NCBI RefSeq assembly: GCF_036669915.1
Contig: NC_089318.1
Location: 16,693,012-16,757,011, forward strand
DNA length: 64,000 nucleotides
Source: Pocillopora verrucosa
Taxonomy: Eukaryota > Cnidaria > Anthozoa > Scleractinia > Pocilloporidae
Direction of reading: 5' to 3'
How positions within the stretch are numbered: the first letter of the stretch is position 1; every line of letters starts with the position of its first letter. A program made the translations under genes and the position numbers. Below the pieces are notes generated by a model. It ran no database searches, was not told the origin of the DNA, and saw nothing but the letters and a program-made list of their open reading frames with translations. Below, in pieces: positions 17,531 through 63,816 of this stretch.

Positions 17531-17575
17531 TAGGTGTTGCATCATTAGCAAATACTCATTTGTGGAAAAAGTGGA

Positions 17576-18064
17576 AAAAAGTTTCTGAAATATTCATTAC
17601 TATTTGTCGTTAAATGATCCAGGTACTCTAGTTTTCAACAATTTGTTGCAGGGACGAAGACGATTTTGGGCCTAATAAGGGCAAAATTACTCACTCCTAT
17701 TTCTACCAATGAAGCCAAGTAAAGCATCAGAAGCATTTATATTTTCTGTTTAGCTTCTTGCTAAGAATATGAATACCGATTTTTAGACTTAAACCGCTGT
17801 CACGTCCGAACGATTGATTATTAGATAACCCGTCGAGAGGCTTCGTGAAAGTTAATTTATTTTCATCCAGTGAATTGTTTTCGTGCTGGAACAAGGGTCA
17901 AAGATATCAAATTAAAACGAAAAACCGTAAGGAAACACCCAAGTCTCATTGTTTAAAAAAAAAAAAAAAAATTTTTACCATAACAAAAACAATTCAAATA
18001 AGTTTTTCGCATCAATTTGCGCATAATTCCAGAAGTCGGTCGCGGAAACCTGGCGATCCGCGCG
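17576..18064 (+). promoter_or_regulatory. conserved upstream block of copy B
   Basis: The block starting TTTCTGAAATATTCAT recurs upstream of copy C (from 23954), before the dead signal exon at 57483 (from 57000) and in part at 55290-55530. It covers the ~490 bp before the signal-peptide ATG, so it is likely promoter plus 5' leader. No TATA box or start site could be assigned with confidence. Confidence 0.5.
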
Positions 18065-22617: not shown

Positions 22618-23940
22618 CAGGATCAAAGTTAATTTCCCAAAGTTTTAAGAGAAGTCACCTGGAAGTAGACAATGTAGTACCCTAAAGCTTAAAAGCTAAT
22701 TAAACAATGGGTTAAAAATTGCCCTCTGGTCGGATTTGTCAAAAACATACCTTTTTGAAATGTTGTCAAAGGTCTTTCAATTTTTGCGAAGCCAATCAGG
22801 GTCTTGTAAATGATGTAGAAAATTGGCAAAGAAGTCATATTTTATGTTCAATATACGTCGATTTCGCACAGAGAAGCCACGCAGTTAAGGAAGGGCACGA
22901 AAATTAGGACTCCCATATTTTTTTTCTCGCACGTGTCCCTTTAGTGCTTGCCTCGCGCTTTTTTTCGCTTGGTTGAAAAACGCGAAAAAACTATGCCTGT
23001 TCTGCAAAGTAACCAGGAGCTAACAGTTCCTATTTGTGAATGGTTTCGTCCACATGCAAGCAATTATCCTTTTGTTGCGCCGTCCTTCCGCTTTGTGTGC
23101 TCTGGATCTATTTGGGTGCCGGTGAGTAATCCCTTGTCTGTAAAGAAATTTAATGAAACATCCACGTTCAAGGAAGACAGACAAATTGTTAACTCTTCTC
23201 TTAGAGTCTTAAGCAGAGGGTCTTCAGGGGATAAACCATTAGCCTTAAAAATGAAAAAGATTTTCACATTTAGGCTTGAAAATTGACATTTTTTAACGGC
23301 TAGTCCTAAAATACTGAGTTAACCGTAAAAAATGTTTCTTTAAAACGTAATGGAAAGAGAGTAGCCGTTACCCATAAAATGCAACATTTTTAACTGTAAG
23401 CCGTAAAAGCCACGAGACCCTATACTCAGATGTCCTGCAATGAAATAGTTAAGGAGTGCGGTCGTTATACAACTCTTTGTCGGTGAGAACAGCTCAGCTA
23501 TTTTCTTAGAACTGCTCAATAGATTTAGCAGAAGATTTTTTTTGAATTAAAATCTGAAATCTGACAGGCAGCTACACTAAGTGGTTTTATTGATCTGTTC
23601 TTACTGTTAGTTTTAATATTTCAAAATCCAGTTTCTGTACTCTTTCCTTATCTTACGCACATAAACAAACTGCATTTGCACTTAGACCGACTAACCATAT
23701 GACGCAATTGTTCACTGGCCAGACGGAATTTAAAATATCATGTTTTAGTTAATGAATGTACATTTAAGCCTTGAAGTAAGTTGTAGTCAATGGATAGAAA
23801 AAAGAATCGATCGTTTAGTATATAGATAAATATTGAACTACCATTTTGAACTCAATGGTTTGATGATCTCGATCATGATCAACGTTAACCTCATATTTTC
23901 GTATTTCCGTCATGCCAGTTTGTCATATGATGTACACCTG
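22618..23940. other. copy B 3' flank, no gene supported
   Basis: ATTAAA at about 22699 may serve as polyadenylation signal. 22720-23010 matches the 3' flank of copy A. 23280-23415 holds small inverted AACGGCTA / TAACCGTAA repeats. 22948-23286 is open but shows no similarity I recognise. Confidence 0.45.
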
Positions 23941-24250
23941 TATAATGACAATAAAAGTTTCTGAAATATTGATAACGATTTGTCGTTAAATGCGCCAGGT
24001 ACTCTAGTTTTCAGCAATTTATTTCAGGGAGGGAGGAGGACGATTTTGGGCCTGAGAGAGATAAAGTTGCTCACTCCTAGTTCTACTACTGAAAGTCAAG
24101 GAAAACAACAGGAGCATTTATATTTTATGTTTAGTTTCTTCCTAAGAATATGGAAACGGATTTTCAGACTTTAAGCACTGTTATGTCTGTACGATTGATT
24201 ATTAAGTGACTCATCGAGAAGCTTCGTAAAAGTTAATCAATTACTTTTGG
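23941..24250 (+). promoter_or_regulatory. upstream block of copy C, fused directly to its linker exon
   Basis: Matches 17570-17870 (copy B upstream block: TTTGTCGTTAAATG, GGTACTCTAGTTTTCA, GACGATTTTGGGCCT) and then switches at about 24245 to intron sequence before the 34-nt linker exon. Signal, PAN and EGF exons are missing between. Confidence 0.65.
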
Positions 24251-24267
24251 TATGCCTTTTTTTTGAG

Positions 24268-25343
24268 CTTCGACGTGTAAGGAAATTTTCGACCGGAATG
24301 TGTAAGTCAATTATTCACTAACAAGAACAAAGCTGGTGCGAAATTTAATGATAGAATATGAAGATAACAGTACTACTACTAATAATAATTCTGAAAATAA
24401 TATTGCACCAAGCATAGCAACCTTGACGATAAACTTCCACATCAGCTTCTCTCATGAAAGGAATCGCATTATCGAAAAGTACTTTTTGTGTCATTTACTG
24501 AATATATGAAAGCTATGGCCCTCATCACGTTTCCACTGAATTTCAAAAGAAAATTCTTAATTTATTAGATCGAAAAAGAGTGGCGAGGTTACCCTGCGCT
24601 TAGACTCAAAGCCAATTTCTGTTTTCTGTCAAATGGGGGATTTTGGATGCGGAGATGGAGAATGGACGCCGACCATTAAGATTAATGGCAATAAGGTAAA
24701 AATTAATCTGCGAATAAATTCACTGTTGATACAAGACAGTGGAAAGAAGCGGCAAAGGGGATGGGCAAAATCTGCGGGTTTTCCCTGAAAAACGTCAGGA
24801 GTCGCTCGCTTGTCTTCACTGAGTGGCAGCCTGGAACAGACTTTTACTGATATCTTATTGAAAGTAAGAAAACAAAAATTGTATTTATATATATATATAT
24901 ATATATGTCAATTTCAGAGTACATTCCATTACGATTCCCAGTTTTGGAGGAACAGGAGTGCTTACAACCTTCCAGGAGGCAAGACTGGCTTTGACTTACA
25001 AGAGACAACGTTACCGACAAACTGGACCACATCCCTCTCCAAGATCGGTCTTGGTATGAAGATCGACAATCAGCTCAGATTTATTGTCATCAACAAGCAG
25101 GTCGACTCTCTCCACTCCCTCATCGCTGATGGGAAATACCACAACACCTCATCGGGCCGTAAAACGTGGAGGACCATGATTGACTCAACAGCTCCCTTAC
25201 AGCGCCACTGCAACACGGAAGGGTTCAATGCTATGTTTAAGAACCGGGCCTCCAAAACAAGAATCGGTATTATTCACTTGGCTTCAAGGTATAGTTTTTA
25301 TCTTCCTTATTTAACGAGGCTCCGTGAGAGATCTTTCGAATGA
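24268..25343 (+). pseudogene. USOMP5-like copy C, 5'-deleted and 3'-truncated
   Basis: Linker exon 24268-24301 (STCKEIFDRNV) follows a TTTTTTGAG, not the CAG used elsewhere. Exon 24569-24695 encodes [20 protein letters not shown] (the conserved His-Met and Gly-Gly-Trp are altered). The last exon starts at 24918 and matches others up to about TRIGII (25275), then runs into unrelated sequence and stops at 25343, losing the Cys-rich final 60 or so residues. There is no signal, PAN or EGF exon. Coding frame is otherwise kept, so decay is recent. Confidence 0.75.
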
Positions 25344-27012
25344 GATTCATCACGTTTAATATCAGAACATTTAATTCATGACATGCAAGAAATTAGCTAA
25401 TACTTTCAGAAGAAATGAAAGGGTTTTCCCATCGATTAAATTTCTTGGGCGTAATTTAATTATTTTACCAAAAAGACAAAAGAATTTAAAATGAAGTCAA
25501 TAAAACTTGGCATTTGTGGCTAAAACGTCCAAGACACAACGTTAAAAACTTTTTTTGGTTCGAATGAAGAGAAAACTTGTCAAATTATCGTTTACATCAG
25601 CTTTGCCCATTGTTACGGGTAAATTTACTGATTTTCCGTGTGTTTGGTTGGAACATAATTATTCGTAAACTTACACATCTAACCATTTCTAATTTATTCT
25701 AGTTCATTCAAGTTCTTTCATTCTAGTAAATCAAAAAATGTATAAAAAAAAACCACAGTAGCTTTTGGAATAGATTTTGCTTGTTACACGCTTTCATTAT
25801 GCACCTGCATGTCGGTACTTTTGTTCATCATTACTAGTGAAATTTTAGGTAAATGTAAGAGTTAATGGTCCATCTGGAAAATTTGGTTTTCATGGTAGTT
25901 AGCAGCTGAGTTTATAGGTAGGTTTCCACACCAACCTTGCATAGCTAAGCAGAAACTTTTATTTACTGTTCCACTTTTATTTCCTAAGCTGCTCCACTGT
26001 AATTAAGATAGGTATATTTTCTATATCAGAGCTGTGAATTCTCATCTAAGTTTCCTATTTTAATGGCCTCGAGTTTATTGTATCCGTCCTTTTAATTTTG
26101 AGATTCTTTGAGAGATGGAATATTTAAGTAGCTTTCGTTTAACTTCAAAGAGACTTTTTTCCTCTCCTTTTTGTCCTTATTCAAATATTGTGATTTGTGT
26201 AACAATGGAACCTCACACCAGTTCATATTTAAGCAAGTACTTTGTAAAGCTTTTTCGATTACATACATGACGGCGTGCCGATTAGATTACATACGACGGC
26301 GTGCCGATTAGAGATCACTAGTTTTGACTCTGGCATGATGTGTGTCAGAGTGCTCTTCGAATAAAAGTCTACTGTGGAACCCTAACACTGTCTCTTCCTT
26401 GACGTCCGTACAAGCTCACTCGAAGTAGATCTCCGTGTACTAGGAAATCGTGACGAGTTTCCGTTCTCGTTAGCCGGGTGGTCTCTACCGAGCTCACGAA
26501 ACCTTATCGTCACACCATAAATCCATCTGTGTTATTCATTCTTCATCTATTCATTAAACGGCTTGCACATAACAAACCAAATAAGCCTCAGTGGAAAATG
26601 TTAACGGCACAGAAGAAGTAAAACCCAGTAACTATATCGCTTTTGGCATTTAAGACAAAGTATTTTCTCTTACGGAAAATGAGTCTGCACGCACTGTGGA
26701 TAAATGTTCTTAATTTTTGGTCAGTTTTCAGCTATCAGGTTTATCTACGAGAGCTAAGAAAGCCTTTTTATGTGATAATTATCCTTTAATATATGAAGCA
26801 TACGACCCCGCGCGCTCTTTTCTTCGAAAATGCATGACAAAAATCTTCCTCTGAGGGCGGTGCGCGATGGCGTAAGTTGGGTCGCTAAGATACCTACTGC
26901 TTTGCGCAGTGTGAGCTAATAAAAAAGTAAAAAAAAAATAATAATAATAAGTAGCATTCAATATTATGATTAAGATTACCTCTGATGAAATCCTCAGTCC
27001 TCAGACTCTATT
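25344..27012. other. intergenic; possible solo LTR at about 26200-26520
   Basis: No gene supported. 26265-26310 has a direct duplication of TTACATA..ACGGCGTGCCGATTAGA. Then come an AATAAA (26360) and a GC-richer stretch ending CGTCACACC, a layout seen in LTRs. No second LTR, primer site or coding region supports it, so this is only a suggestion. Confidence 0.3.
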
Positions 27013-27016
27013 GAGA

Positions 27017-27095
<79 letters not shown>
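27013..27095. repeat. (GA)n microsatellite, left boundary of unit 1
   Basis: About 40 GA dinucleotides with one GG interruption, followed after 12 bp by the first TATTTGCTAC motif. Confidence 0.95.
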
Positions 27096-27097
<2 letters not shown>

Positions 27098-27107
27098 CGA
27101 TTCAAGT

Positions 27108-27247
27108 GCGTATTTGCTACAATGAGTGAGTATTTGCTACCATAGCAAATACCCATTAGTGCGTATTTGCTACCATCAATGGGTATTTGCTACGGTAGCA
27201 ATTACCCACGGTGCGTATTTGCTACACTAAACGAGTATTTGCGACCG
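27108..27247. repeat. subterminal motif array of unit 1
   Basis: Seven or so copies of a 13-mer like GGGTATTTGCTAC in both orientations. Where face to face they form near-palindromes such as TATTTGCTACCATAGCAAATA. The array ends at the last GTAGTAAATAA. Confidence 0.85.
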
Positions 27248-27469
27248 TAGTAAATAATCAAGCTTTAGTTTTACGACTACCAAACCACTAAGTACATAAC
27301 AAAGACAATGCTACATCGTTTATAGTATTTCTTTTTTAAAAAGATATTTCCCTCTTCATATTGCCCTTGTCAACGTGTTAAGTTTCTACGTTCTACTTTT
27401 AAGTTGCTATGAGACTGTTTTAACCTTTATAAAAAATACACGTAAAGCCAAAATAAGCATGTAGCATTG

Positions 27470-30400
27470 TTTACCACAGTTGAACGCACTACATCGCAAG
27501 GTGACTGTTTTCTACAGTTCAGTGTAGTGCTGTTCACTATAGTTCAACGCACTGCAGAGCTAGATTTTACAGTTTTCTATACTTGTTCAGTACAGTGCGA
27601 GGCACTGTATAGAAAGATTTAACAACCTGTTGTGTTGTTAAGTGCAATTCAGTGCGCTGCATAAAAAGATTTAACAGTTTTCTACAGTTTAATGTAGAGA
27701 TGTTCAGTACACAGCGTACAGAATAGCGCACTGCATAGCAAGATTTTACAGTTCTCTACAGTTCAGTGTAGTGTTGTTCACTGCAATTAAGCGCTTCGCA
27801 TAGCAAGATTAAACTGATTTTCTACAGATCAGTGTAGTGTTGGTCACTACAGCTCAGTGCAATGCATAGCCCGATTTGACAATTATCTACAGTTCAGTGT
27901 AGTGTTGTTCAGTACTGTGCAGCGCTCTGCATAGATATATTTTACAGTTTTCCTCAATATATTGTTGTGTTGTTAAGTATAGTAGGGCGCACTGCATAGA
28001 AATATTTAACAGTTTTCTACAACTGTTTCTAGAACTGGTCAGTACATAGAGTACAGCTTAGTGCACTGTATAGCAAGAATTTAAAAGTTTCTACAGTTCA
28101 GTGTAGGTTGTTAAGAACAGAGCAGCGCTCTGCATAGCAAGATTAAACAGCTTTTATACCTCAGTATAGTGTTGTTAAGTACAGGGCAGCGCTCTGCATA
28201 GAAAGATTAAAACAGTTTTCTACTGTTTTGTGCTGTGTTGTTCAGTGAAGTACGGCGTTGAACTAATGCGTGGCAAGATTAAACAGGTTTCTACAGTTTA
28301 ATGTAGTGTTGCTAATTACAGTACAGCGCACTGCATAGTAAAGATTTTACAGTTTTCTACAGTTTAGTTTAATGTTGTAAAGTACAGTGCAGTGCTCTCC
28401 ATAGCAAGATTAAACAGACTCGTTTATTCCCAGTTCAGTGTAGTGTTGTTCACTATAGGGTTGTTCACTACAGTTCAGCGCAATGCATAGCAAGAGTTAA
28501 AAGTTTTCTACAGTTCAATGTAATGTCGTTCAGTACAGTACAGCGCACAGCTACATAGTAAGATTGAACAGTTTTTTACTCTTCAGTGCAGTGTTGTTCA
28601 CTACAGTTAAGCGAAACGCATTGTAAGATTCAGTAGTTTTCGTAGTTTTCACGATTAAACAGTTTTCCACGGTTTAGTTTAGTGTTGTTCACTACATTGT
28701 AGCGCTCTGCATAGCAAGATTAAACCTATTTTCTACAGATCAATGTAGTATTAGTCACTACAGCTCATCGCACTGCATAGCTAGATTTAACAATTGTCTA
28801 CAGTTCAGTGTAGGGTTGCTCACTACAGTTAAACGGACCGCATAGCAAAGTTACACGTTTTCTGCAGTTCAGTGTAGAGTTCTTCACTACAGTTTAGCTC
28901 AATGCATAGCTAGATTTTTTCAGTTTTCTACAGTTTAATGTAGTGTTGTTCAGTTCAGTGCAGCGCACTGCATAGAAAGATTTTACAGTTTTCCACAGTT
29001 TAGAGTTATGTTTTTCAGTACAGTAGGGCGAACTGAATAGAAAGATTTACCGGTTTTTTACAGTTCAGTGTAGAACTGTTCAGTACATAGAGTACAGCTT
29101 AGCGCAATACAGAGAAGTAGTTTACAGTTTTCTACAGGTCAGTGTATTGTTGTTAATTACAGGGCAGCGCTCTGCATAGAAAGATTTAACAGTTTCCTAC
29201 TGTTTAGTGTAGTGTTGTTCAGTGCAGAACGGCGTTGGACTACGTAGCAAGATTAAACAGGTTTCTACAGTTCAGTGTAGTGTTGTTAAGTACTGTACAG
29301 CGCACTGCATAGTTAGATTTTACAGTTTCCTACAATTTAGTGCAATGTTTCTCAACACAGTGCAGCGCTCTGCATACCAAGATTAAACAGAGTTCCACAA
29401 GTCAGTGTAGTGTTGTTCACTACAGTGTATCCCTTTGCAAAGAAAGAGTAAGCCATTTTCTACAGATCAGTGTAGTGTTGTTCACTTTAATTCAGCGCAC
29501 TGCATAGCAATTAAGAGTTAAAAGTTTTCTACAGCTCAGTGTATTGTTGCTCAGCACAGTGCAGCGCAGCGCACAGGTACATAGCAAGATTTAACAGTTT
29601 TCTACTGTTCAGTGCAGTGTTGTTCACTACAGTTTAGTGCAACGCATAGCAAGATTCAGTAGTTTTCGACAAGTCAGTGTAAAAATGTTTACTATACTTC
29701 AGCGCACTGCAGAGCAATATTTAACAGGGTTGTGTTGTTTAGTACAATGCAGCGCGCTGTATGAGCAATACTTAACAGCTTTCTATAGTTTAGCGTAGAG
29801 TTCTCCACTACAGTGCACTGCATTGCATAGCAAGATTAAACAGTTTTCCACAGTTCAGTTTAGTACTGTCAATACAATGCAGCACTTTGCATAGCAAGAT
29901 TTAAATGTTTTGTACAGTTTAGTGTTGTGTTTTTTCAGTGCTGTTCAGTGCACTGCATACCAACATTTAACAATTTTCTACAGTTTAGAGTCGTGTTTTC
30001 CAGTACAGTACGTACAGCGCACTGCATAGAAATATTTAACTGTTTTCTACAATTCAGTGTAGACTTAATTGTTCAGTACAGTGCGGCGTACTGCACTGAA
30101 AGATTGAACAGTGCTCTACAGTCAATTGTAGGGTTGTTTAGTATCGCTCAGCGCATTGCATTGTAACGTGTAACAGTTCTCTAGAGTTCAGTGAAAGTCA
30201 TATATTTGTACTGCGGAAAATACATTTTAAGCAAATGAAGATCATCGCAGTATATACTCAACTTAAGCAGTTGAGAAATAGTTTAGTTTAGTGTTTTATT
30301 ATTCAGTACAGTGTAGCGCACTGCATAGAAAGATTTTACAGTTCTCTACAGTTCAGTGTAGCGTTGTTAATTACGCAGAGTACAGTGCTTTACTCTGCAT

Positions 30401-31120
30401 AGCTAGATTTTACAGTTTTCTACAATTCAGTGCAGAGTTGTTCAGTGCAATGTAGTGCACTGCATAGTAAGACGTTGCAGTGTTCTACAGTTTAGTGATA
30501 TGTTGCTCAGTATAGTGCAGCGTCCTGCATAGTAAGATTTAACCGCTTCTACCGTTCGGTGTAGTCTTGTTCACTACAGTTCAGCGTAAAAGCATAACGC
30601 GATTGAGAAGTTTTATACAGTTCAGAGTAGAAATGTCTACTAATGTTAGAGCAATGCCTTCCAAGATTTAACATTGTAGTGTTCTTCAGTTCAGTGCAGC
30701 GCAGCGCACTGCATAGCAAGATTTATCAGTTTTCTACAGTTCAGTGTAGTGTTCTTCAGTACAATGCAGCGCTCTGCATATCACTGAGATTGAACATTTT
30801 TCTACTGTTTGGTGTTTTGTTGTGTAGTACAATTCAGCGCACTGCATAGAAAGATTTGATAGTTTTCTCCAGTTCAGTGTAGATTTGTTCACTTTACCTC
30901 AACGCACTGCATAACAAGAGATTATAGTTTTCTACAGTTCAATGTAGTGCTGCTCAGTACAATACATCGTAATGCATAGCAAGATTTAACGGGTTTTATA
31001 CACATCAGTGTAGTGTTCTTTAGTACAATACAGCGTCCTGCATAGCAATATTTAACAGTTTTAACAGTTCAGTACAGTGTTGTTCTGTACAGTGCAGCTC
31101 ACCGTATAGTAGTTATCCTA
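27470..31120. repeat. satellite, about 65-bp unit, about 56 copies
   Basis: Unit resembles GATTTAACAGTTTTCTACAG, TTCAGTGTAGTGTTGTTCAC, TACAGTTCAGCGCACTGCAT, AGCAA. Units differ by 10-25% and some are shortened. Each unit contains two dyads (CTACAGTTCAGTGTAG and TGCAGCGCACTGCA). Short open frames across it are not genes. Confidence 0.9.
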
Positions 31121-31660
31121 TGCCGTGAAATGCACTTTTCTAAACAACAGTACACGGGCTGGACAGAACTGTTCACTCGTACGGTAATCGGGAAGTTAAA
31201 CCAATCCCGCGTGTAATCTGAAGCAATGGCTGCCATTGTTCAAAACTGGTGCTATACGGTCATATTTTGCTTGTATAACAATGGCCATTGTTACCAAAGT
31301 TGAAGCACATTACTTGATAAGGGTAGCAAATTAAGACCATGACAAAATGTAAAGTGCAAAAAGTCAAGCGTTAGGCGGCAATCAAGCAATCATGAATCTA
31401 GCACCCTGTTATTTTCAAGTGTTTCAGTCATGCAGTAAAAAAGAACACGTTAACTATATGTGCCATTCTGAAACTGGGTGTGTTGCAAACTGGACTAAAG
31501 CCTAAGGCTAAACTGGCATTGGCACTGACTTACATGTCCGCATGAATTTAAAACTAAACTAGGCGTACACTGAGCTCAAAATTTAACTGAGCTATACTGT
31601 AAAATTTGTTCATTGACAAAGTTGTTTTGATAGCCTCTTCCGAGCAAAAACACATAACTC
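31121..31660. other. unit 1 interior, nothing recognised
   Basis: Unique-looking AT-rich sequence between the satellite and the Penelope relic; no coding or repeat signature. Confidence 0.4.
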
Positions 31661-31669
31661 CTTCAATCT

Positions 31670-32530
31670 TTTTTTGAATTAGCCGTCTCCTCCGAAAATA
31701 TGAGTCTCAGTCTCCTCAATGCTAGGGAGTACGAAATGCCTTTTTAAAAAAAATAAAATCTTGCGGGCATTCGGGTGGCAAGGTGTATGGTGAAGATGTT
31801 GATGTTTGTCGGCTGGTTTTATATAAACATCCTTGAGCCTCCTTAACTGCCCGCAATTAATCATTCATCATGTGGTACATGGAGGGTGGAGCCCGACAAA
31901 ATCAACTAGTGTGCATATGAAAGTCCCTTCGGATAAGTAGCCTATGTCCCTTATTCCTTCAAGAAAGTCGTTTGCATCATTATACAAAAATTGAGTACCA
32001 GCGGTCTTAAGTGATGGTCTACAAATTGTAAGATTCTCTCCGTAGCAGTATTAAAATCTGATATTAGTAATGGTCTCCCGGGGCATCCTTCCTTGTGAAT
32101 TTTGGGCAGTGAGTAAAATCTCCCCGTTTGTTCCTCTCCTGATGCCATAATAGTTATTTTTTCGTCAACTAAAATGCCATTTGCGGTGGAATCCCCTTAC
32201 TTTTTCATTGATCTTTTTAGTCATGTCCTTAGTTAGATCTTTTCCTAATGGTTTGTATACTTTAGAGTCATCACGTGGGCTCTGCAATGCTTTTCATAGC
32301 TATACGCCTCTTTATCTATGACAGGGACTGCAGATCCTTTATCGGCTTGTTTAATAATGATGTAATCATATCCAAGCACATCAAGTGCTTTTTGTTCCTC
32401 ACACGTAAGATTTCGTTCATACGTGGAATCAAAGTCATGAGATAAAATTTCTCTGTCAAGTGACTCTGCTGATATGATTCAATCGCTAGTGAGCTCCCTA
32501 TTCCTGTCAGGGGCCGGTCCACGTCAATCT
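31670..32530 (-). mobile_element. Penelope-like element, internally deleted, minus strand
   Basis: In minus-strand order: LGYDYIIIKQADKGSAVPVI (about 32380-32320), GRFYSLPKIHKEGCPGRPLL (about 32130-32065), TERILQFVDHHLRPL, then directly DVYIKPADKHQHLHHTPCHP (about 31835-31775). The catalytic YIDD region between HHL and the YIKP..KH motif is missing, and several stops occur. These motifs are Penelope-family RT signatures. Confidence 0.8.
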
Positions 32531-32843
32531 TTTCCTAGATGTTGGAATGTCAGAAAAGTAGCCTCCTATATCATCTTCCGAATGAAAATACCGTGGTTTA
32601 ATTTAAGTAAACATAAAATATTATTCCCACAACGCTTTTAATTGCTACTTTTCAGCCGTATGCCGTGAGTTAAACTATTGCCTACAAAAATGAGCGTGTG
32701 TGCACTTTTTTTCGGTAAAGACGTGTTATATTTTAACTTAGCACATACATAGGAGTTAATTCTTCTGAAACAATACGCAGTTGGTTCCCTAAAACGTAAT
32801 CCTTTGACAAATAAAATGTTTTCAGAGCAAAAGAAGTATAACT

Positions 32844-33445
32844 GGGTACTTGCTACAAAAAGCGAGTACTTGCTACGTCAAATGGGTTTTTGCTACGGAG
32901 TGGCTTTTTTGTAATAAATACGTTCAATTGCGACATATAATCCCAAAAACGGTTTTAACATGATTTGTTTAACAAGCGCAGAACCCTCTGAGGAAGAAAC
33001 GCATTTAATGTATAATGAAATGATTTTATAAAGGACTAAGATTCTCGGCCTTCTCAAAAATTCTTGACGTCTTAGGTCTAGTTGTTAGTATATGTTGGAA
33101 TGGGGTTTTGTTCTAAAATGAGGATGGTAAAAAAAGTAAAATATCTGAGACCCCATAGGGGTTTTGTGGAAATAAAAATGACCTAGAGGACCTTTAAAAT
33201 CCGTTTATATCTTTTATTTTCGTGAATTTTTTTATGGATGTACCAAAGATTGATTATTTGCTACATTGGTCGTGTTTAGATGAATATAGTTACTTCAGAA
33301 TTTGTATTGGTTGGTAACTTTGAGTTGATCTATAATTATTGAGAACTAAAAAGCGGTATTTCACTTTAAAAAGCAGGGAAATGTAGCATTTTAATAATTT
33401 GAACGTCAAAAGGAGAAAAGGTATCAGATACGCAGTCATGAATCT

Positions 33446-33446
<1 letters not shown>
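32844..33446. repeat. right tail of unit 1
   Basis: Motifs at 32844, 32864 and 32884 (20-bp spacing), GATGTACC at about 33237, a motif core at 33255, CTAAAAAGC near 33346, and ATGAATCTA immediately before (GA)n. The right tail of unit 2 (42994-43601) carries the same items at nearly the same distances (408 versus 410 bp from first to fourth motif; 195 versus 198 bp to the GA tract). Confidence 0.75.

Positions 33447-33525
<79 letters not shown>
33447..33525. repeat. (GA)n microsatellite shared by units 1 and 2
   Basis: About 40 GA repeats with one AA interruption. It ends unit 1 (after ATGAATCTA) and starts unit 2 (12 bp before its first motif). Confidence 0.95.
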
Positions 33526-33527
<2 letters not shown>

Positions 33528-33537
33528 AGAGTGATCT

Positions 33538-33812
33538 GGGTATTTGCTACGTGGTTAGATTCTTGTGGGTATTTTCTACGGTACAAAATACCCATTGAGG
33601 GTTTTTGCTACGGTAGGAAATACCCATGTGGGTTTTTGCTACGGTAGGAAATACCCATGTGGGTATTTGATACGTTCAATGGGTTTTTGCTACGGTAGCC
33701 AATACTCATCTGGGTCTTTGCTACTCCCAAGTGGGTATTTGTTACCCTAGCAAATACTCAAAATGGGTTTTTGTTACCGTAGCAAATACTCAAAATAGGT
33801 ATTTGACAAATT
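33538..33812. repeat. subterminal palindromic motif array of unit 2
   Basis: About nine copies of GGGTATTTGCTAC (variants GGGTTTTTGCTAC), many followed by its inverted partner GTAGCAAATACCC, for example GGGTTTTTGCTACGGTAGGA then AATACCCA. The arms are about 13 bp with almost no spacer. Confidence 0.85.
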
Positions 33813-33899
33813 TTTTACCTATTTCAAGGTTTCATATTAAAGAAAACTATTTTTTTGGTTCTACGGTTTATTACCGAAGAAGTACATCATTAGCGGTCA

Positions 33900-33968
33900 G
33901 CGTTCACACACTTCAACTTTCGTTTTCGTGTTTCACGTGTTCGTCGATGACGGCAACTTTCAAACGGT
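33900..33968 (+). other. candidate non-coding first exon of the recombinase gene
   Basis: GATGACGGCAACTTTCAAACG is followed by GTAAGA at 33969, a good donor. The next good acceptor before the coding ATG is TTTGTTTGTATTATAG at 36981-37000 (two bases before ACCATGG context). Splicing would remove the whole 41-bp satellite. The ATG at about 33949 would give only a short upstream ORF. The exon start is not known. Confidence 0.35.
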
Positions 33969-34351
33969 AAGAAAATAAGATCAACATAGGTTTCTTGTTA
34001 TATTTCGTCCCTTAAGCAAGTGGTTATCAACGAAATACGCTTTGCAAGCATCCAAGGTATAAGTGTCGATATATTTTTTACAATATTTGAGAAAAAAGCC
34101 GATAAACTTGAAGAATGATTGGCCTTCGTAATATCTTACATAATTATCGGTTTACTTATATTTAACTTCCAAATCATATAGATATGAATCGTAGAATGCA
34201 TTTTTTCTGCTTTGTTCTAACAATGAAGTGGGTGAAAGCTCTTACTTAAAAAATAAAATTGCTTTTTATAAACAGAAATTCCCTTGATAGCAACAAAACA
34301 TCGATCGATGTTTCAGGACTTTGGATAAGTTATTTTCGATGCTATTATTTA

Positions 34352-36960
34352 TTGTGATCATCTCTTATCCTATTTCAATCCCTGTCAAATCATTGCAATC
34401 ATCTCTTATGCTGTGTTGATCACTGTCAAATCATTTTAATCAACTGTTATGCTGTGTTGATCACTGTCAAATCATTCTAATTAACTGTTATGCTTTGTTG
34501 ATCACTGTCAAATCATTCTAATAAACTGTTATGCTGTGTTGATTACTGTCAAATCATTCTAATCATCTGTTCTGCTGTGTTGATAAATTTCAAATCATTC
34601 TAATCAACTGTTATGCTTTGTTAATCACTGTCAAATCATTCTAATCATCTGTTATGCTTTGTTGAGCACTGTCAAATCATTCTAATCATCTGTTATGCCT
34701 TGTTGAGCACTGTCAAATCATTCTAATCATCTGTTATGCTGTGTTGATCACTGTCAAATCATTCTAATCATCTGTTCTGCTGTGTTGATCACTGTTAAAT
34801 CATTTTAATCATATGTTATGCTGTGTTGATCACTGTTAAATCATTGCAATCATTTCTTATACTCTAGTGATCACTGTCAAATCATTCTAATCATCTGTTC
34901 TGCTGTGTTCATCACTGTTAAATCATTTTAATCATATGTTATGCTGTGTTGATCACTGTTAAATCATTGCAATCATTTCTTATACTCTAGTGATCACTGT
35001 CAAATCATTCTAATCATCTGTTCTGCTGTGTTGATCACTGTTAAATCATTTTAATCATATGTTATGCTGTGTTGATCACTGTTAAATCATTGCAATCATT
35101 TCTTATACTCTAGTGATCACTGTCAAATCATTCTAATCATCTGTTCTGCTGTGTTCATCACTGTTAAATCATTTTAATCATATGTTATGCTGTGTTGATC
35201 ACTGTTAAATCATTGCAATCATTTCTTATACTCTAGTGATCACTGTCAAATCATTCTAATCATCTGTTCTGCTGTGTTGATCACTGTTAAATCATTTTAA
35301 TCATATGTTATGCTGTGTTGATCACTGTTAAATCATTGCAATCATTTCTTATACTCTAGTGATCACTGTCAAATCATTCTAATCATCTGTTCTGCTGTGT
35401 TGATCACTGTTAAATCATTTTAATCATATGTTATGCTGTGTTGATCACTGTTAAATCATTGCAATCATTTCTTATACTCTAGTGATCACTGTCAAATCAT
35501 TCTAATCATCTGTTCTGCTGTGTTCATCACTGTTAAATCATTTTAATCATATGTTATGCTGTGTTGATCACTGTCAAATCATTCTAATCATCTGTTATGC
35601 TGTGTTGATCACTGTCAAATCATTCTAATCATCTGTTCTGCTGTGTTGATCACTGTCAAATCATTTTAATCATATGTTATGCTGTGTTGATCACTGTTAA
35701 ATCATTGCAATCATTTCTTATACTCTAGTGATCACTGTCAAATCATTCTAATCATCTGTTCTGCTGTGTTCATCACTGTTAAATCATTTTAATCATATGT
35801 TATGCTGTGTTGATCACTGTTAAATCATTGCAATCATTTCGTATACTCTAGTGATCACTGTCAAATCATTCTAATCATCTGTTCTGCTGTGTTCATCACT
35901 GTTAAATCATTTTAATCATATGTTATGCTGTGTTGATCACTGTTAAATCATTGCAATCATTTCTTATACTCTAGTGATCACTGTCAAATCATTCTAATCA
36001 TCTGTTCTGCTGTGTTGATCACTGTTAAATCATTTTAATCATATGTTATGCTGTGTTGATCACTGTTAAATCATTGTAATCATTTCTTATACTCTAGTGA
36101 TCACTGTCAAATCATTCTAATCATCTGTTCTGCTGTGTTGATCACTGTTAAATCATTTTAATCATATGTTATGCTGTGTTGATCACTGTTAAATCATTGC
36201 AATCATTTCTTATACTCTAGTGATCACTGTCAAATCATTCTAATCATCTGTTCTGCTGTGTTGATCACTGTTAAATCATTTTAATCATATGTTATGCTGT
36301 GTTGATCACTGTTAAATCATTGCAATCATTTCTTATACTCTAGTGATCACTGTCAAATCATTCTAATCATCTGTTCTGCTGTGTTCATCACTGTTAAATC
36401 ATTTTAATCATATGTTATGCTGTGTTGATCACTGTTAAATCATTGCAATCATTTCTTATACTCTAGTGATCACTGTCAAATCATTCTAATCACCTGTTCT
36501 GCTGTGTTCATCACTGTTAAATCATTTTAATCATGTTCTGCTGTGTTGATCACTGTTAAATCATTGCAATCATGTGTTATGCTGTGTTGATCACTGTTAA
36601 ATCATTTTAATCATCTGTTCTGCTGTGTTGATCACTGTTAAATCATTGCAATCATGTGTTATGCTGTGTTTATCACTGTCAAATCATTCTAATCAACTGT
36701 TATGCTTTGTTGATCACTTTCAAATCATTCTAATCATCTGTTATGCTGTGTAGATCACTGTTAAATCATCTGTTATACTCTGTTGATCACTGTCAAATCA
36801 TTGTAATCATGTTATACTGTGTTTATCACTTTCAAATCATTGAAATCATCTTTTATGCTGTGTTCATCACTGTCAAATCATTTTAATTATCTTTTATGCT
36901 GTGTTGATCATTGTCAGATCATTCTACTCATCTGTTATGCTGTGCTAACCATTGTCAACT
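34352..36960. repeat. 41-bp satellite with a 123-bp higher-order unit
   Basis: Over sixty copies of a 41-mer such as TGATCACTGTTAAATCATTT + TAATCATATGTTATGCTGTGT. From about 34858 to 36470 three monomer types alternate strictly; TATACTCTAG recurs at 34858, 34981, 35104 and onward every 123 bp. Monomers at both edges are more diverged. It stops 45 bp before the recombinase ATG. No unique spacers exist, so it is not CRISPR-like. Confidence 0.95.
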
Positions 36961-37004
36961 CTATCATTGAGATCAGTTTTCTATTTGTTTGTATTATAGT
37001 AACC

Positions 37005-40000
37005 ATGGAAGGTAGTTCTGAAATAAGGAAAAAGTCTCGGGAATCTAAAGTGTGTTCGAGATGTGGGAAATCAGTTATAAATTTATCTCGTCATCAGAAG
37101 GATGTACATAAAGTGAATAAGATTTTTCGTCAGGTAGATGTATATATAAATGGAAACAAGAAAGCGCCTAATAGGAAGATAAAGTTTTGTCCGTTATCTC
37201 CATGCAAGCATTCAAAGAAAGGTGTCTTTCAACTTCATCATCATTTACAGTCAAATATCCACAAGCTTAATCCCAACTCAAACCAATACTTAGATGCGCT
37301 TAAATCTGCTCCGAGAATTGGGCTTCAAGAGCTACGAGATCACATTGCCAAGAGAAAGAAATCCAAAGCAAAGAGCGCCACAACTAAAGATGGTCCTAAA
37401 AAGAGAAAAATCGAATCAAAATCACCTGTACGTGGAAAGGCCGCAAAAAGGGTGAAATTTTAGAAGGGTGACAAGGAAAATGAGTATAGTTTGGTGAATA
37501 GAATCGAAGCTGAGGAAGAAATTGAAAATGACTCGGATGATCAATTATTAGAAAATCCTGAAGGAGAAGCAACTATCAGCAGAAACGTGAGTAACCCTGG
37601 GCACCTCGCACCGACCTCCTCCAATAGTAATGCAGAGGAGCGCAAACTACATAATGAAGAAAGTTGTGAATCAAAGGTAAGAGAGACGTACAATGATGAT
37701 GACAGCAAATTAGAGTATGATCAGCAAGTTGATAAAGTGGAACACAAGCTACATAATGAAGAAAGTGGAGATTCAGGCAATGATCATGACAGTAATTTGG
37801 AGTATGAAAAAGTAATGGATCAAATGGAATCAAAGGTAGGTGATACACATGATGACCATGACAGCGATTTGGAGTATGATCAACTTGTGGATAACGTGTG
37901 GAAAAGAAATGAAGAGTGCAAGAAGCGAAGCTTTAAACAGTTAGTGTCTATGATGTCCTCCCAGTGTGAAAGCGATGCCGAGCTATCTGAAGAGTTAAAC
38001 AACCGCAAAAATGCTGACCAAGTAATCCAACCACCTCAACCACCAGTGACGGCTGGTAATACCAAATCTAGTGAAATAGTTATATGCGACAGTGAAGAAG
38101 AGGAAATTTTAGACCCAAACTATCACCCTTCCCTGGACTCCGAATCAGAGTGTAGCACTGGAAGCTTGTCAGATAACTGCTCGTTGCAAGAAAGGGATGA
38201 CATTTTAACTGATTTCGTGGAAAACGTAGATAATCTCGATTTTCTTCGTGTGGAACCAGAATGGAAGAGCGTGGTTGATGTTGTTTTTGAAAGAAAAAAG
38301 AACGCTGGTAATACTGACTCCCAAAGCAATCTTTCACAAGGTAAAGTGCCTAAGGAAGTTATGAATGATGATGAATCATCAGTATACGATAGCGATGATG
38401 ATGATAATGACGACTGTCTTGAAGAGATGGAAGATGATGTCAGTTTTGAAGACAATGATAGTAGTGATGACAGCCCACTGCTTAACGAGTTTCATTCCTG
38501 GTTGATAGACGTAGACGGGGGTTATCGCTGCGCAAAAGTGGCTGGTCAGTACAAGTCACAGGTAAAACGCATCATGAAAGTTCTTTCAGAAGATTTCCCT
38601 CAAGCAGCAAATGAAATAGATCTTGTTACTGTCGAGGGGCATGACGGAGTGGTAATGTTGAGGAAGTGGTTGGGTCAACTATCTGAGGAGTATCAACCTG
38701 GAACCATTAGATCATACCTAATGAGCCTTAGGCTATTCCTTAAATTCCTTGTGCAAGAAGAGAAAGGGCAAGATAGATTAGACACACTTCATGCAAGGAG
38801 AGATCTTTTAACTTCGTGGTCATCTGCTCAAAGAAAGAAGGTGCTGAAAAGGAAATTAGAGAAACATGACATGGACTTTGCAAAACTCCTTTCTAGCGAA
38901 GATCTATATAAAGTGTCAAATGGACAACAGCGAATAAACATAATTAAAGCGCTTGGAACAGCTGCGGAGAAAAGCAAAGCTTGTGGAGAACCTGTGCTGG
39001 TCAACGATCAGACCTTTTGCGAAGTAAGGGATTGGCTGATTACAAGATTAATAATTGACAACTCCGGAAGAAGTGGTATTGCAGCAAATATAACAGTGGA
39101 GGAATTCAAAGATGCTAAACTGTACGCTGGAGAAGAAGATGGAGAGAGATACCGCGTATCAGTTAAGAATCACAAGACAGGAGGTGTTTATGGGGCAGCC
39201 ATTGTATGGTTTCATGCTGATGTTTACAATCTGGTGAATACGTATATCTCAAGGGTGAGGCCTAAGTACGTCAAAGATGCCACAGATAACATGTTCGTTT
39301 CAACCAATGGCGTTAAACTTACTTCATCGCAAGTATCCACGTGTCTGACTCGTACATTTCAAAGGGAGGGTGTGAAGTTTCACGGTCGCATCTCCGCAAC
39401 CTTGATAAGAAAATCTCTGGCATCAGGAGTGCATGTCCATTTGCCTGAAGATCAAGAACAACTGGCTGCCCTTGCACAGCACAAACCTCAAACACAAGCT
39501 CAATATTACCGCATCAATGACAAAGTTAGAGAAACAGATATTGGGCGTCGTGCTGTCAGAAAATTTATCACCATGAACTGCGCAAAGACAGAGGTAAGTA
39601 CTCTTATAATGCATACCAATCGTAGTAATTTGAATAACAATTGGCATACGAATTCTGATTTCTTTTAGGTATCAATAATTCCTGTCGAGTGGACCGAGGA
39701 AGAGACCTCAAAACTTCAAGATTTATTCAAGTCTGAAATTGAGACTGGTAACATAACTGAAAACATTGTCAGAGATAAACTTGGTGCTTCCAACCTGTTG
39801 GAAACACACTCCATGAAGGCAATTGTGTTGAAAGTGAGAAGGCTTCGATCAGAATTTACCAAAAACTTAGAACCACCAACTGAAGTTGAGTCTCCTGAAC
39901 AGAAGATAGAACGGTTTATGTCTTCCAGAGCTCCATCCATCGCATCTGAATCTGCAAAGCCATCATGGAGTAAGTTCACCGATGAACAAACAGACCATCT

Positions 40001-40202
40001 CCTATCGTTAACTCAGGATATGATTGAAAACAACGCAGTAAAAAGAGAGGTCGTTTGGGAACGGGTGATAAATGATGAGAAAGCATGGAAAACCGGGTTG
40101 GTCTTCGGAACCGATGATGAGGAGCTTCTTTTGAGGCAAAAACAACGTTTGGCGGACAAGGTACGAAAAGAAGTCAAACGTCAAAAGATGAAGAGAAAGT
40201 AG
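37005..40202 (+). CDS. tyrosine recombinase with C2H2 N-terminus and SANT-like C-terminus (one in-frame TAG)
   Basis: Exon 1 37005-39593, intron 39594-39668 (GAG|GTAAGT...TTTTAG), exon 2 39669-40202, phase 0. About 1040 codons with TAG at codon 153. The start ATG sits in ACCATGG. Residues 17-35 form a C2H2 finger (CSRCGKSV..SRHQKDVH), and 62-86 a second Cys/His cluster. A basic KKSK..KKRK stretch follows. Residues 160-480 are acidic with three repeats (HNEES...LEYDQ.VD). A core-binding region (about 490-600) precedes the catalytic domain: R689 (NSGRSG), K724 (NHKTGG), T799-x-x-R802 (ATLIRKS, Thr where most have His), H826 (AQHKPQT) and Tyr834/835 (QYYRI). Exon 2 has two Trp/helix modules (VEWTEEETSKLQDLF, SKFTDEQTDHLL) like Myb/SANT. 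Probable recombinase of unit 2. Confidence 0.75.
37461..37463 (+). other. in-frame TAG separating zinc-finger part from recombinase part
   Basis: The frame from 37005 continues past AAAAGGGTGAAATTT-TAG-AAGGGTGAC without any shift and stays open for 710 more codons. No intron that would remove it is visible. The first downstream in-frame ATG is at about 37815. It may be a recent nonsense mutation, a readthrough site, or mark two separate products. Confidence 0.8.
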
Positions 40203-41322
40203 TAGTTTGATCCTGTGGTTCTTGCATTATATTTGAACATTAGTTGACATTGAACATTTCTTGTCTTTATGTATTCAGGGTTACAACATAATTGAGTCCT
40301 ATATTGTTAACATGTTATTTTCTTTAACCGTTTGCCAGTCATTTTATGGTTGATCGTTTTATTTCAAGTAAGTCAATATTCCCTAAAAAGGCCGATTTAC
40401 ACAATGCAATTTCTTCGTGTGTTAAGGTTCGAACGACAAGTCATAGGGTCGTGTACGACCTGACGAATGACCGTTTATATGGTATGATTCGGGTCACATG
40501 CATCAAGTCATATACTACAATCGCATCGTGGAAATCGGCCTTAAGAGTCATATACTACAATCGCATCGTGGAAATCGGCCTTAAGAGTCATAGAATTTGT
40601 CTTGGTGACTGATGTGTGTAGGACATCGACTTCTATGAAAAAGATTTAACTTGTCTTGGTCTTGTTGCGAGGTGTTATAAAGTTGAATTTTTCATAAAGC
40701 AAAAGTTGTCGTTTAAAAACTTAGCTCCAAGTGATAAAGCTTATATCTGGAATTAAAAGAGTTTACTTTGAGACTCGTTGTCATGAACCTGCAATATATT
40801 GTCTTTTTAAGTGCAGTTCCAGTTGAGATTTTGTGGAAGTTTCATGACGTTTTCGAAAAGTTTAGGGTGAAGTCACTAAGCCCGTGAAATACATATTAGA
40901 CTAACACACTTTATTAACCACTAATTTCGTTGTTTCCTTTAGTGTCTATTGAACTATTACATGTTAACAGTTAAATATTTTTTTATGGGTTTAACTTTAC
41001 CCTAGTGCAACTTTTGTCGTCATAATAGAGCGATATCGCATAACCCCCTTCCTAAATATTGGTGTTTTATTCTAAATGAGCCAATACAAAGATAACATTA
41101 GAATACTTAAGACTTTATCTATTGTTGTCTTTCTACGATGTCCATTAACCTTTAACTAATATCCACTTGCTTTTAAAAATATTTATATCGCTCTGTAAAC
41201 CTCACAAACCGGTGAAATTGCAGCTAAAATCGCCATTGTCATAGAGCTTTAAGGATGATCAACACGCACGCCCAAACTTGTATGCGAGCTGTCAATAGGA
41301 TATGTATATGTAATCGCATGGG
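40203..41322. other. recombinase 3' flank, no gene supported
   Basis: No AATAAA close to the stop; AT-rich. A 40-bp unit starting CATATACTACAATCGCATCG is tandemly duplicated at 40507-40586. Nothing else recognised. Confidence 0.5.
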
Positions 41323-41323
41323 T

Positions 41324-41404
41324 CCTCGGGCAATTAAGGATTAATTTCACGCGTATTTCCAAACTTTGAAAACACCAGTGAAATTAATCCTTAATTGCCC
41401 GAGG
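41324..41404. repeat. perfect 27-bp inverted repeat (hairpin)
   Basis: 41324-41350 (CCTCGGGCAATTAAGGATTA...) is the exact reverse complement of 41378-41404, with a 27-bp loop. Imperfect pairing extends further outwards (AATCGCA). Confidence 0.9.
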
Positions 41405-41422
41405 GCACTTGCGATTTCTTGT

Positions 41423-41822
41423 TTATCACATAAAGGGCAAAATTATCGCGGGAATCCATTCACGCGCGACGTTATTCTTTTAGGAAGCCCGTTCAATGCC
41501 GCGACATTGCTCATTTTTTCCTCTTGTCTTTGCCCATTGTTGGAAAATGTTAGTCCAGTAGTCCGTACTTCTTTTTGTGTTTTTGTGCTCACTTGTGTTT
41601 AGTAGTTCCTCAATAAACTCTTCAACAAAATGGGAAGCCATTGTTGCAGAAAATTTTAATCGGCAACAAATCTAAGCAATAACTTCATTACAAAGCAACT
41701 TTAAACCAATCAAGATCAAGTAATCATGCCCTTTTGATTACCAAAAGTACCCTCGTGATTAAGAAAAAATGCCCTCTGTCTCAGCCAATCAGCACTTAGT
41801 AATTTTGCCCTGTATGTGATAA
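41423..41822. mobile_element. MITE-like element with 24-bp TIRs
   Basis: TTATCACATAAAGGGCAAAA (41423) and its inverse at 41799-41822 match at 22 of 24 bases. The 400-bp interior is non-coding. No convincing target duplication. Confidence 0.6.
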
Positions 41823-42993
41823 GCTACATAAAATGGGAATTTGCTAGGTGTAGAGTTTTGCTCATAAATCCAATTAACAGCAATAAAATCTATCGAAAAA
41901 CCAGTGGCCATGTTTGTAAAGTAAAGCGTCATGTCTCTTCTGAAAATTAGCCGTTTGCGCATTTAGTAAGAGTATCTAAATTTTGTGCTAGCAAACTTAA
42001 GGTGGAATCCCTGTACATGAAAGGGTATCATTTACTGTTCCCCTCTTTTGTTGGGAATCTACTTCCCTGAAAAAATAAGCTGGAAAAATGTATTTTTACG
42101 CGTTAAGAACTGTGCTTAATTTAAGTAGATCTACTGAGTACAAAGACTGTCTCAGGCCTGCTAGTATGGACACCTTAACCCAAGACGTTTTACTGCGTCT
42201 TTAATCATGTTTAAGGTATACAAGCGACAGGAAGCTTCGTATATTTCTAATTTTTTTACACCTAGAGTCTGTCATTACAATTTGCGCTCCTCTGCTCTTA
42301 ATGTTTCCCAGCCTGTAAATACCTCTAGCCATATTCAGAGCTCTTTTCATACACTATCTCTCATTCTTGGAACCAGTTACCATCTTCAATTAAATCAGCA
42401 ACCACTTTATCGGAATTTAAGTCTGGCCTATCTCGCATAACTACGCTTGGCTGTAAGCCTATAAGTGTATTAGTATACAATTGTAGAGGTAGGGTTATGA
42501 ATTGGTAATTAGGCTTGGGGTTAGGGCTATAATGTTAGGTGATTAGGGCTGGTAGGGTTTCAGGGGAAGTTCAGCATCGGGAGCTAAGTGATATTTTTGC
42601 GTTTTTATCATCTTTGTCGAGCGTTTTTAACATGAGCCATTAGGCTCGGGGGATTGGGTAACCACCCCCTACGTTGCCGACGTGAAAAAAATTGTTGTTG
42701 TCCACGTGATCAGTAAAAAATGGTCTAAAAAAGCTTTATTTTGTTAATTCAATTAGTACACTAGGCAGGGAAATCATCTTAACTGTCAATATTGCTCCGC
42801 TTCTCTTTTTAACTTGAATGTCGCTCAGTCACGATATTTCTGCTTTAATTCAAATAATAACACTTTTAAAAAATGTTTAAATTATTTTCCATGTTCCCTT
42901 TCACAAGGCGTCTTTTAGCTATGCAAACAAATTACCAGAATTCCGCTTTATTCAAGTTTTATAAGTAAAAATGTCCCATCAATTTGGCAAAGT
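41823..42993. other. unit 2 interior, no gene supported
   Basis: AT-rich. A degenerate GGTTAGGG-like patch lies at 42485-42555. No coding region recognised. Confidence 0.4.
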
Positions 42994-43599
42994 GGGTATT
43001 TGCTACTTACAAGTGGGTATTTGCTACATAAAATGGGTATTTGCTACATGCAGAATTTCGCTCGTAAAATTGATAAAAATGAATGGAATAGCTTGTAAAC
43101 ACGTTGTAAATTCTTAAAAAATAATGCGTCATCCATGCATGCGAAAATCATGGCATTAGAATGAACTAAAAGTGAAATAATGCGAAAAACGCATTTTTAG
43201 AAATGTTTGGGTTCCAAAGTTTCAAGTCTTGTACACCTACATACCCAGAAGCGCACTTTTTGCTAAAAATGGTCTTCACAGAAAAAATTTTAAAACGACA
43301 GAACTCAGAAGGCTTTTACGGCAAAGAAGAACATTTAGAAGACCTTTGATATCCGGAAAAGTTTTTGAATTTTATAAAAAAAATGATTGATGTACCTAGG
43401 TTTGGGTATTTGCTACCTTCTGACTTTTCAGTGACGAAATGCGAACAACAATTAAACTTTAATAACGTTGGTTTTGCATAGAAGAGAGCTAAAAAGCAAT
43501 ATTCTTTTGGCTAGAATTGTTAAATACTTTAAAAAAAAACTTTTACTTAATTTAAATAGGCATAGAGAAAACGCGTAGCAAACACTCACTGATGAATCT

Positions 43600-43601
<2 letters not shown>
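42994..43601. repeat. right tail of unit 2
   Basis: Perfect GGGTATTTGCTAC at 42994, 43015, 43035 and 43404; GATGTACC just before the fourth; CTAAAAAGC near 43490; GATGAATCTA before (GA)n. Same layout as 32844-33446. Confidence 0.8.
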
Positions 43602-43643
<42 letters not shown>

Positions 43644-43670
43644 CGAGAGAGAGAGAGACGGAGAGAGATG
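43602..43670. repeat. (GA)n microsatellite, right boundary of unit 2
   Basis: GA repeats with CAGC, ACG and ATG interruptions, more degraded than the other two tracts. Confidence 0.9.
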
Positions 43671-43973
43671 GAGAAAAAAATTTTAATTCGGGCCATAAGA
43701 TGCAAAGCTTACCCATAAGGTCCTGATGACCTTAAGGGCCACAGGGGCGGGGTATAGAAAAGAAAAAACGACGGTGAAAAGGTATTTCACTATAACTCGT
43801 GAGCCAGATGTTCGGTTTAGAGGGATAATTGGACTTGTGACTCGTTGATGAAAAAAGTTATCACCACTTAGTAATACAAATGGTTGAACCACTTCTTGAT
43901 GTAGTCATCATGCTCACCATACGCGCGAATTAAGATTTACAATGCATTGCTGTAGCTATCACCACTCCCATTA

Positions 43974-44326
43974 GATCTGTCTCGGTATGAATCTTTACCA
44001 GCACCTCAGTTTTGTTGCATAAACAAGATGGCTAACTCCCTGCCCTTACTGATGGGCAATACCGCAACGCCTCACTGGGACGTGATAGTGAAAGACGACG
44101 ATTGGCTCAGAAGCCTTCCTAAAGTACAACTGCAACAAGGAAGTGTCAATACCATTGTTGAAAGCAGCCTTTCCAAGGAAGAATTGGCATGTGAGTCCAG
44201 AGGTGGCTTTTTCACAGGACGATACAAGAATGAGCCCAACACGTGTGGCAAAGAAAAGCATGGACCAATTCGTTAGACGGTGCAAACAAACACATCAAAG
44301 CCATTGGATATATCCTGGTCCAGTGA
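43974..44326 (+). pseudogene. relic of a USOMP5-like last exon
   Basis: Bases parallel the last exon (AGATCTGTCTCGGTATGAA, CTGATGGGCAATACCGCAAC, CCCAACACGTGTGGCAA, AACACATCAAAGCCATTGG, ATATCCTGGTCCAGTGACAG) but with frameshifts and deletions. Confidence 0.8.
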
Positions 44327-44330
44327 CAGG

Positions 44331-63799: not shown

Positions 63800-63816
63800 T
63801 GAATATAAATAAAAAA

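What the first reader, a model, noticed from the sequence alone, without database searches (positions are those of the whole stretch)
27013..43670. Two tandem GA-microsatellite-bounded units with the same end architecture; one encodes a tyrosine recombinase
Seen: (GA)n at 27013-27095, 33447-33525 and 43602-43670. After the first two tracts, exactly 12 bp separate GA from an array of GGGTATTTGCTAC motifs. Before the second and third lies a tail with three motifs about 20 bp apart, a fourth 408/410 bp later, GATGTACC just before it, and ATGAATCTA 195/198 bp on at the GA tract. The two tails are diverged copies with preserved layout. Unit 2 holds a tyrosine recombinase gene; unit 1 holds a satellite and no recombinase. 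Inference: a Crypton-like element that integrates into GA repeats, plus a non-autonomous partner sharing its ends and the middle GA tract.
Basis: partly seen in the sequence, partly recalled or inferred. Interest (0 to 1): 0.87.

Follow-up and report, generated by a model that had tools for sequence, protein, structure and literature searches.

The report
Coral tyrosine-recombinase transposons bounded by GA repeats
In a Pocillopora coral genome, two related mobile-DNA units sit back to back, each set between runs of GAGAGA, and one carries a recombinase gene of the lambda-integrase type; the layout suggests a jumping element that aims at GA repeats, though other copies could not be checked.

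Summary
Every (GA/TC)8+ run in the window lies at the three unit borders. The 13-bp motif occurs 35 times (1.1 expected), 32 of them in the four unit ends. The tails are diverged homologues (363 of 650 columns identical; 0 of 500 shuffles). The host is a Pocillopora coral: the recombinase matches a P. verrucosa protein at 861 of 863 positions; one difference is an in-frame stop. Its predicted fold is that of tyrosine recombinases (first 25 Foldseek rows).

Missed before: an inverted motif beside GA at each right end, so the units have imperfect inverted termini; the bases between motif and GA pair less well. Best reading: a recombinase-driven transposon that circularises and inserts where its GA crossover meets genomic (GA)n, with motif arrays acting like lambda arm sites; unit 1 is an older non-autonomous relative. 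Membership in Cryptons is not shown: animal Cryptons are described without terminal repeats or a C-terminal domain. Copies, empty sites and target preference stay untested, because the genome search did not complete (17 attempts). New variant of a known kind.

The parts
27013..27095 (+). left GA tract (outer border of unit 1)
   Evidence: 82 of 83 bases fit GA
27096..27120 (+). left terminus of unit 1: 12 bp containing GATTCA, then first motif
27108..27259 (+). head array of unit 1: 9 motif copies (up to 3 mismatches), forming 3 palindromic dyads (13+1+13) and 3 single copies
27460..31098 (.). satellite of unit 1, period about 65 bp
31871..32478 (-). decayed reverse-transcriptase-like fragment, Penelope-like by eye only
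   Evidence: translations; Pfam gave no hit for 3 of 3 pieces
32844..33445 (+). tail of unit 1: three direct motifs, a fourth at +408, terminal inverted motif
33421..33445 (-). right terminus of unit 1, inverted relative to the left terminus (AGATTCAT and motif with 3 mismatches)
33446..33525 (+). middle GA tract shared by the two units
33526..33550 (+). left terminus of unit 2: 12 bp (CTAGAGTGATCT), then motif
33538..33791 (+). head array of unit 2: 15 motif copies (up to 2 mismatches), forming 6 palindromic dyads and 3 single copies
34351..36961 (.). satellite of unit 2, 41-bp unit in a 123-bp higher-order repeat
37005..39593 (+). recombinase gene, exon 1: N-terminal Cys/His region, acidic linker, core-binding and catalytic domains; in-frame TAG at 37461-37463
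39594..39668 (+). intron (GT...AG), absent from the P. verrucosa protein model
39669..40202 (+). recombinase gene, exon 2: C-terminal helical region, weakly homeodomain/Myb-like
41823..41932 (+). relic piece of a third tail (68% identity over 110 bp to tail 2)
   Evidence: blastn E 4e-11, nhmmer E 8.9e-7
42994..43601 (+). tail of unit 2: three direct motifs, a fourth at +410, terminal inverted motif
43575..43601 (-). right terminus of unit 2, inverted relative to the left terminus (TAGATTCAT and motif with 2 mismatches)
43602..43668 (+). right GA tract (outer border of unit 2), degenerate on its outer side

Best explanation
Unit 2 (33526-43601) is a tyrosine-recombinase DNA transposon; unit 1 (27096-33445) is an older, non-autonomous relative with the same kind of ends. 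Proposed mechanism: the recombinase excises the element as a circle. The joined ends form a site of two inverted core arms (ATGAATCTA and a TAGATTCAT-like partner) around a short GA crossover. That crossover pairs with any genomic (GA)n, so insertion leaves GA on both sides without a diagnostic duplication. The head array of 27-bp palindromic dyads and the tail motifs would be arm-type sites bound by extra DNA-binding regions of the same protein (N-terminal Cys/His region or C-terminal helical region), bringing the ends together as in lambda integrase. The second unit landed in the GA flank of the first, so they share a tract. Shown: anatomy, inverted terminal motifs, recombinase fold (predicted), homologous tails, near-identical protein records in other Pocillopora. 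Inferred: circle, core arms, GA as target, arm-site role, trans-mobilisation of unit 1. This copy is interrupted by a stop codon, while an uninterrupted protein model exists in P. verrucosa.
Confidence: 0.57

Rival explanations
1. Local tandem duplication of one ancestral GA-array-tail segment, with interiors replaced later; the GA tracts are duplicated flanks, not insertion targets.
For: Same orientation, three GA tracts, and the surrounding locus is itself a tandem gene array with duplicated blocks (for example 7644-11051 vs 18280-21641 at 85%).
Against: Self-BLAST found no similarity between the interiors, and the stretches just inside the head arrays do not align above base shuffles (score 15 against 13.0 +/- 1.8, 200 shuffles). 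Near-identical recombinase proteins on other Pocillopora contigs show that the gene is not confined to this locus.
Confidence: 0.13
2. The ends belong to another kind of transposon (DDE type with terminal inverted repeats, or a Helitron-like mosaic with satellites and microsatellites), and the recombinase gene is a passenger.
For: Imperfect inverted termini, subterminal motif arrays and internal satellites also occur in other transposon classes (recalled); unit 1 carries the ends without the recombinase.
Against: No DDE or Rep/helicase family was hit: the ORFs of 90 aa or more in 27013-43668 were scanned against Pfam (the three recombinase pieces, eight others: 0 of 8 with a hit at E 0.1). Decayed or split genes would escape this. 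GA lies in direct, not inverted, orientation on both sides.
Confidence: 0.14
3. GA runs are part of the element's own ends that expand by slippage after insertion, and the element has no GA preference.
For: The innermost border bases could seed a GA run; only one locus is available.
Against: Long GA on both outer borders in the same strand orientation; the right tract is degenerate on its outer, host side (63 of 67 bases), as an old host microsatellite would be.
Confidence: 0.16

Closest known systems
Crypton DNA transposons (CryptonA/CryptonI of animals, CryptonF of fungi)
   Same: Tyrosine recombinase as the recombination enzyme, proposed circle-and-insert cycle, non-autonomous relatives (PMC3212892, outline and sections 3, 5, 6, 8, 17 read). 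CryptonF, like this protein, has a C-terminal DNA-binding domain.
   Different: Animal Cryptons are reported without terminal repeats and without a C-terminal domain; the sections I read mention no GA-repeat target and no subterminal palindrome array. No DUF3504 or GCR1_C match was listed here (no positive control run).
Endogenous nimaviruses with telomere-specific tyrosine recombinases
   Same: [quoted passage not shown] insertion into simple repeats (PMC10871703, abstract and passages read).
   Different: Viral genomes of hundreds of kb and a different repeat, (TAACC)n; no sequence comparison with their recombinases was made here.
Lambda integrase and Tn916/Tn1549 type integrative elements
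   Different: Prokaryotic; the crossover here would be a dinucleotide repeat; no sequence-level match to E. coli XerD and no PHROGs family for 2 of 2 proteins scanned.
Tyrosine-recombinase polinton-like viruses of cryptophytes
   Same: Recombinase-mediated insertion of eukaryotic DNA elements with terminal inverted repeats (PMC12220804, passages read).
   Different: Much longer terminal repeats, capsid genes, 14-40 kb viruses.

Membership tests
Crypton (animal, CryptonA/I) | Tyrosine recombinase present, no reverse transcriptase in the element | tested here: met
   YR fold of the model; no RT family hit among the unit-2 ORFs of 90 aa or more. The RT-like fragment, seen by eye, is in unit 1.
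Crypton (animal, CryptonA/I) | Catalytic tetrad R-H-R-Y | tested here: inconclusive
   R, R and Y conserved; the HxxR His position is Thr in 38 of 39; mapping by motif only, hhalign failed.
Crypton (animal, CryptonA/I) | No terminal repeats (PMC3212892 section 8) | tested here: not met
   Inverted terminal motif with imperfect arms, about 25-27 bp, in both units; arms alone weaker.
Crypton (animal, CryptonA/I) | No C-terminal domain after the recombinase (PMC3212892 section 8) | tested here: not met
   177-aa exon 2, conserved in those family members that reach so far, modelled as helices at mean pLDDT 79.
Crypton (animal, CryptonA/I) | Clusters with Crypton recombinases in a tree | not tested
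   No Crypton sequences at hand; DUF3504 not listed for any of 39 members at E 0.01, without a positive control.
CryptonF (fungi, oomycetes) | C-terminal GCR1_C DNA-binding domain | tested here: inconclusive
   GCR1_C not listed, no positive control; C-terminal fold weakly homeodomain/Myb-like.
DIRS/Ngaro YR retrotransposons | Reverse transcriptase/RNase H in the same element | tested here: not met
   No such family among the unit-2 ORFs of 90 aa or more.
Nimavirus-type telomere-specific YR | Insertion into simple repeats | tested here: inconclusive
   GA on both sides at one locus; other copies not seen.
Nimavirus-type telomere-specific YR | Carried by a large viral genome | tested here: not met
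   Unit 2 is about 10 kb with one recognised gene.

The most novel reading that the evidence does not exclude
An animal transposon family that works like lambda integrase: inverted core arms, arm-site arrays bound by extra domains, and a crossover that is itself a GA dinucleotide repeat, so that any genomic (GA)n is an attB site. It has a recombinase with Thr in the HxxR His position, and satellite-bearing non-autonomous relatives.
Probability: 0.36. Interest if true: 0.75.

Novelty: new variant of a known kind. Interest (0 to 1): 0.6.

Why it matters
If right, it gives a eukaryotic tyrosine-recombinase transposon with readable core and arm sites, something not described for Cryptons in the sections I read, and a safe-haven strategy of inserting into microsatellites. 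It would be directly testable in coral assemblies, and it would explain why such ends are hard to define: the target repeat hides the junction.

Tried and rejected
Copies elsewhere: the YR profile in viral contigs (7 pattern stretches, none confirmed), the double motif in viral contigs (0) and the YR profile in genome contigs (97 pattern stretches, none confirmed) gave nothing, as expected for a coral element; the tools also say that records near the window's genome may be left out. The profile protein search scored only the 7984 candidates sharing most words; of its 13 rows three were new, P0084-P0086. PDB sequence search with the profile: 0 hits. PHROGs: 0 families for 2 proteins. Of the 83 proteins most have sources marked ena, lgn or jgi without names, so host range beyond Pocillopora, Stylophora and Montipora is not known.

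Selection: 24 of the 83 proteins went into alignment A1 and 39 of the 86 found in all into A2, the one behind the model and the residue counts; 27 proteins plus the window's exon 2 into A3.

Empty site by paralogy: the locus is a tandem gene array, but the flanks 25236-27012 and 43671-43972 have no convincing match elsewhere in the window (best E 0.14). The repeats at 12893-13023 and 52806-52920 belong to paralogous blocks, not to another element. Upstream of the relic tail: score 13, shuffled 12.1 +/- 1.6 (200 base shuffles), so no further homology. The first tail alignment, with free end gaps, was uninformative and was replaced.

Literature: Crypton with microsatellite (13 papers), Cryptons with target site and insertion (34, 25 listed), Crypton with coral (10), CryptonV with CryptonA (2), YR with dinucleotide repeat (0), YR with cnidaria and Crypton (5), YR with telomere repeat (59 with at least 3 of 4 terms, 12 listed), Pocillopora with Crypton (0). 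No listed title or opening of an abstract describes a GA-targeting coral element. Only open-licence papers are held, and Repbase was not searched.
Full report
Source. The window is from a Pocillopora coral. The recombinase frame matches P0001, a P. verrucosa protein, at 861 of 863 positions (one of the two differences is the X that I put at the stop). P. meandrina, Stylophora and Montipora proteins also appear among the 83 hits.

Observation. The three GA tracts, the exact 12-bp gap, the motif arrays and the tail layout are all there. The motif is far above chance (35 against 1.09), and 32 of the 35 hits lie in heads and tails. The four (GA/TC)8+ runs of the 64 kb all lie in the three border tracts. 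The two tails align over their whole length (363 identical of 650 columns) with a score no shuffle reached (0 of 500). Between the motifs 0 of 500 and 1 of 500 shuffles reached the score; the second stretch includes the terminal inverted motif. Stricter local scoring without that motif was weaker: 27 of 300 and 7 of 300. The heads are about 76% identical over 265 bp including GA. Self-BLAST shows no similarity between the interiors: unit 1 has a 65-bp satellite and a decayed RT-like piece (by eye; Pfam gave nothing); unit 2 has a 41/123-bp satellite and the gene.

New: inverted termini. Read from the outside, the left ends are TCCGATTCAAGT+GCGTATTTGCTAC (unit 1) and CTAGAGTGATCT+GGGTATTTGCTAC (unit 2). 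The right ends, reversed, are CTAGATTCATGACT+GCGTATCTGATAC and TTAGATTCATCAGT+GAGTGTTTGCTAC. Over 30 bp the left-right pairs are reached by 26 (unit 1), 15 (unit 2), 7 and 3 (cross pairs) of 20000 random window 30-mers. Most of this comes from the 13-bp motif. For the arms alone the within-unit pairs are reached by 498 and 108 of 20000, the cross pairs by 3 and 14; the two right arms are alike (0 of 20000), the two left arms are not (5687 of 20000). So the inverted motif beside GA is well supported, right arms are conserved, and left arms are uncertain. GA itself is direct on both sides. This is what a recombinase site split by circular integration could look like: inverted arms with the crossover between them.

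New: dyads. The heads contain nine 27-bp palindromes (13+1+13), three in unit 1 and six in unit 2; the tails contain direct single motifs plus the terminal inverted one. A 110-bp relic of a third tail lies inside unit 2 at 41823-41932.

Activity. The cluster of P0001 lists 50 member sequences but one contig, so it is not a copy count. This points to a multicopy, recently spreading gene, but genomic copies were not seen.

Mechanism and rivals. See the best explanation. Circle formation, core arms, GA as target and arm-site roles are inferred. Tandem duplication of the locus, a passenger recombinase in another transposon, and GA grown from the element's own ends remain possible. Because the arms-only test was weaker than the full-terminus test, I lowered the best explanation from 0.60 to 0.57 and the novel case from 0.40 to 0.36, and raised the three rivals by 0.01 each.

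Known kinds. It works like a Crypton or lambda-type integrase system. Membership in animal Cryptons is not claimed: the reported absence of terminal repeats and of a C-terminal domain (PMC3212892, outline and sections 3, 5, 6, 8, 17 read) is not met here. YR elements aiming at simple repeats are known in nimaviruses (PMC10871703, abstract and passages read), so repeat targeting by a YR is not new in itself. Polinton-like viruses combine YR and terminal repeats (PMC12220804, passages read). PMC5753468 and PMC4157794 were seen as passages only.

Limits.

Noticed in passing
window 7644-25235 and 50402-53734: Tandem array of paralogous gene blocks (for example 7644-11051 vs 18280-21641, 85% identity), with degraded exon copies at 43973-44330 just right of the element.
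   Followed up: partly
window 41823-41932: Truncated third copy of the tail start inside unit 2, 68% identical to tail 2; how it got there is unexplained.
   Followed up: partly
window 31390-31401: TCATGAATCTAG, the same 12-mer as at the right end of unit 1, inside unit 1 without GA beside it; chance or an older nested end.
   Followed up: partly
window 27460-31098 and 34351-36961: Both units carry a long satellite just inside the head array, with repeat units of 65 bp and 41/123 bp that look unrelated.
   Followed up: no
window 41300-41420: Inverted repeat around 'ggattaatttca' in the non-coding part of unit 2, seen by eye, possibly a small hairpin-type insertion.
   Followed up: no
window 60311-63838, minus strand: Open 1175-codon frame that looks by eye like an endonuclease/reverse-transcriptase LINE.
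   Followed up: no
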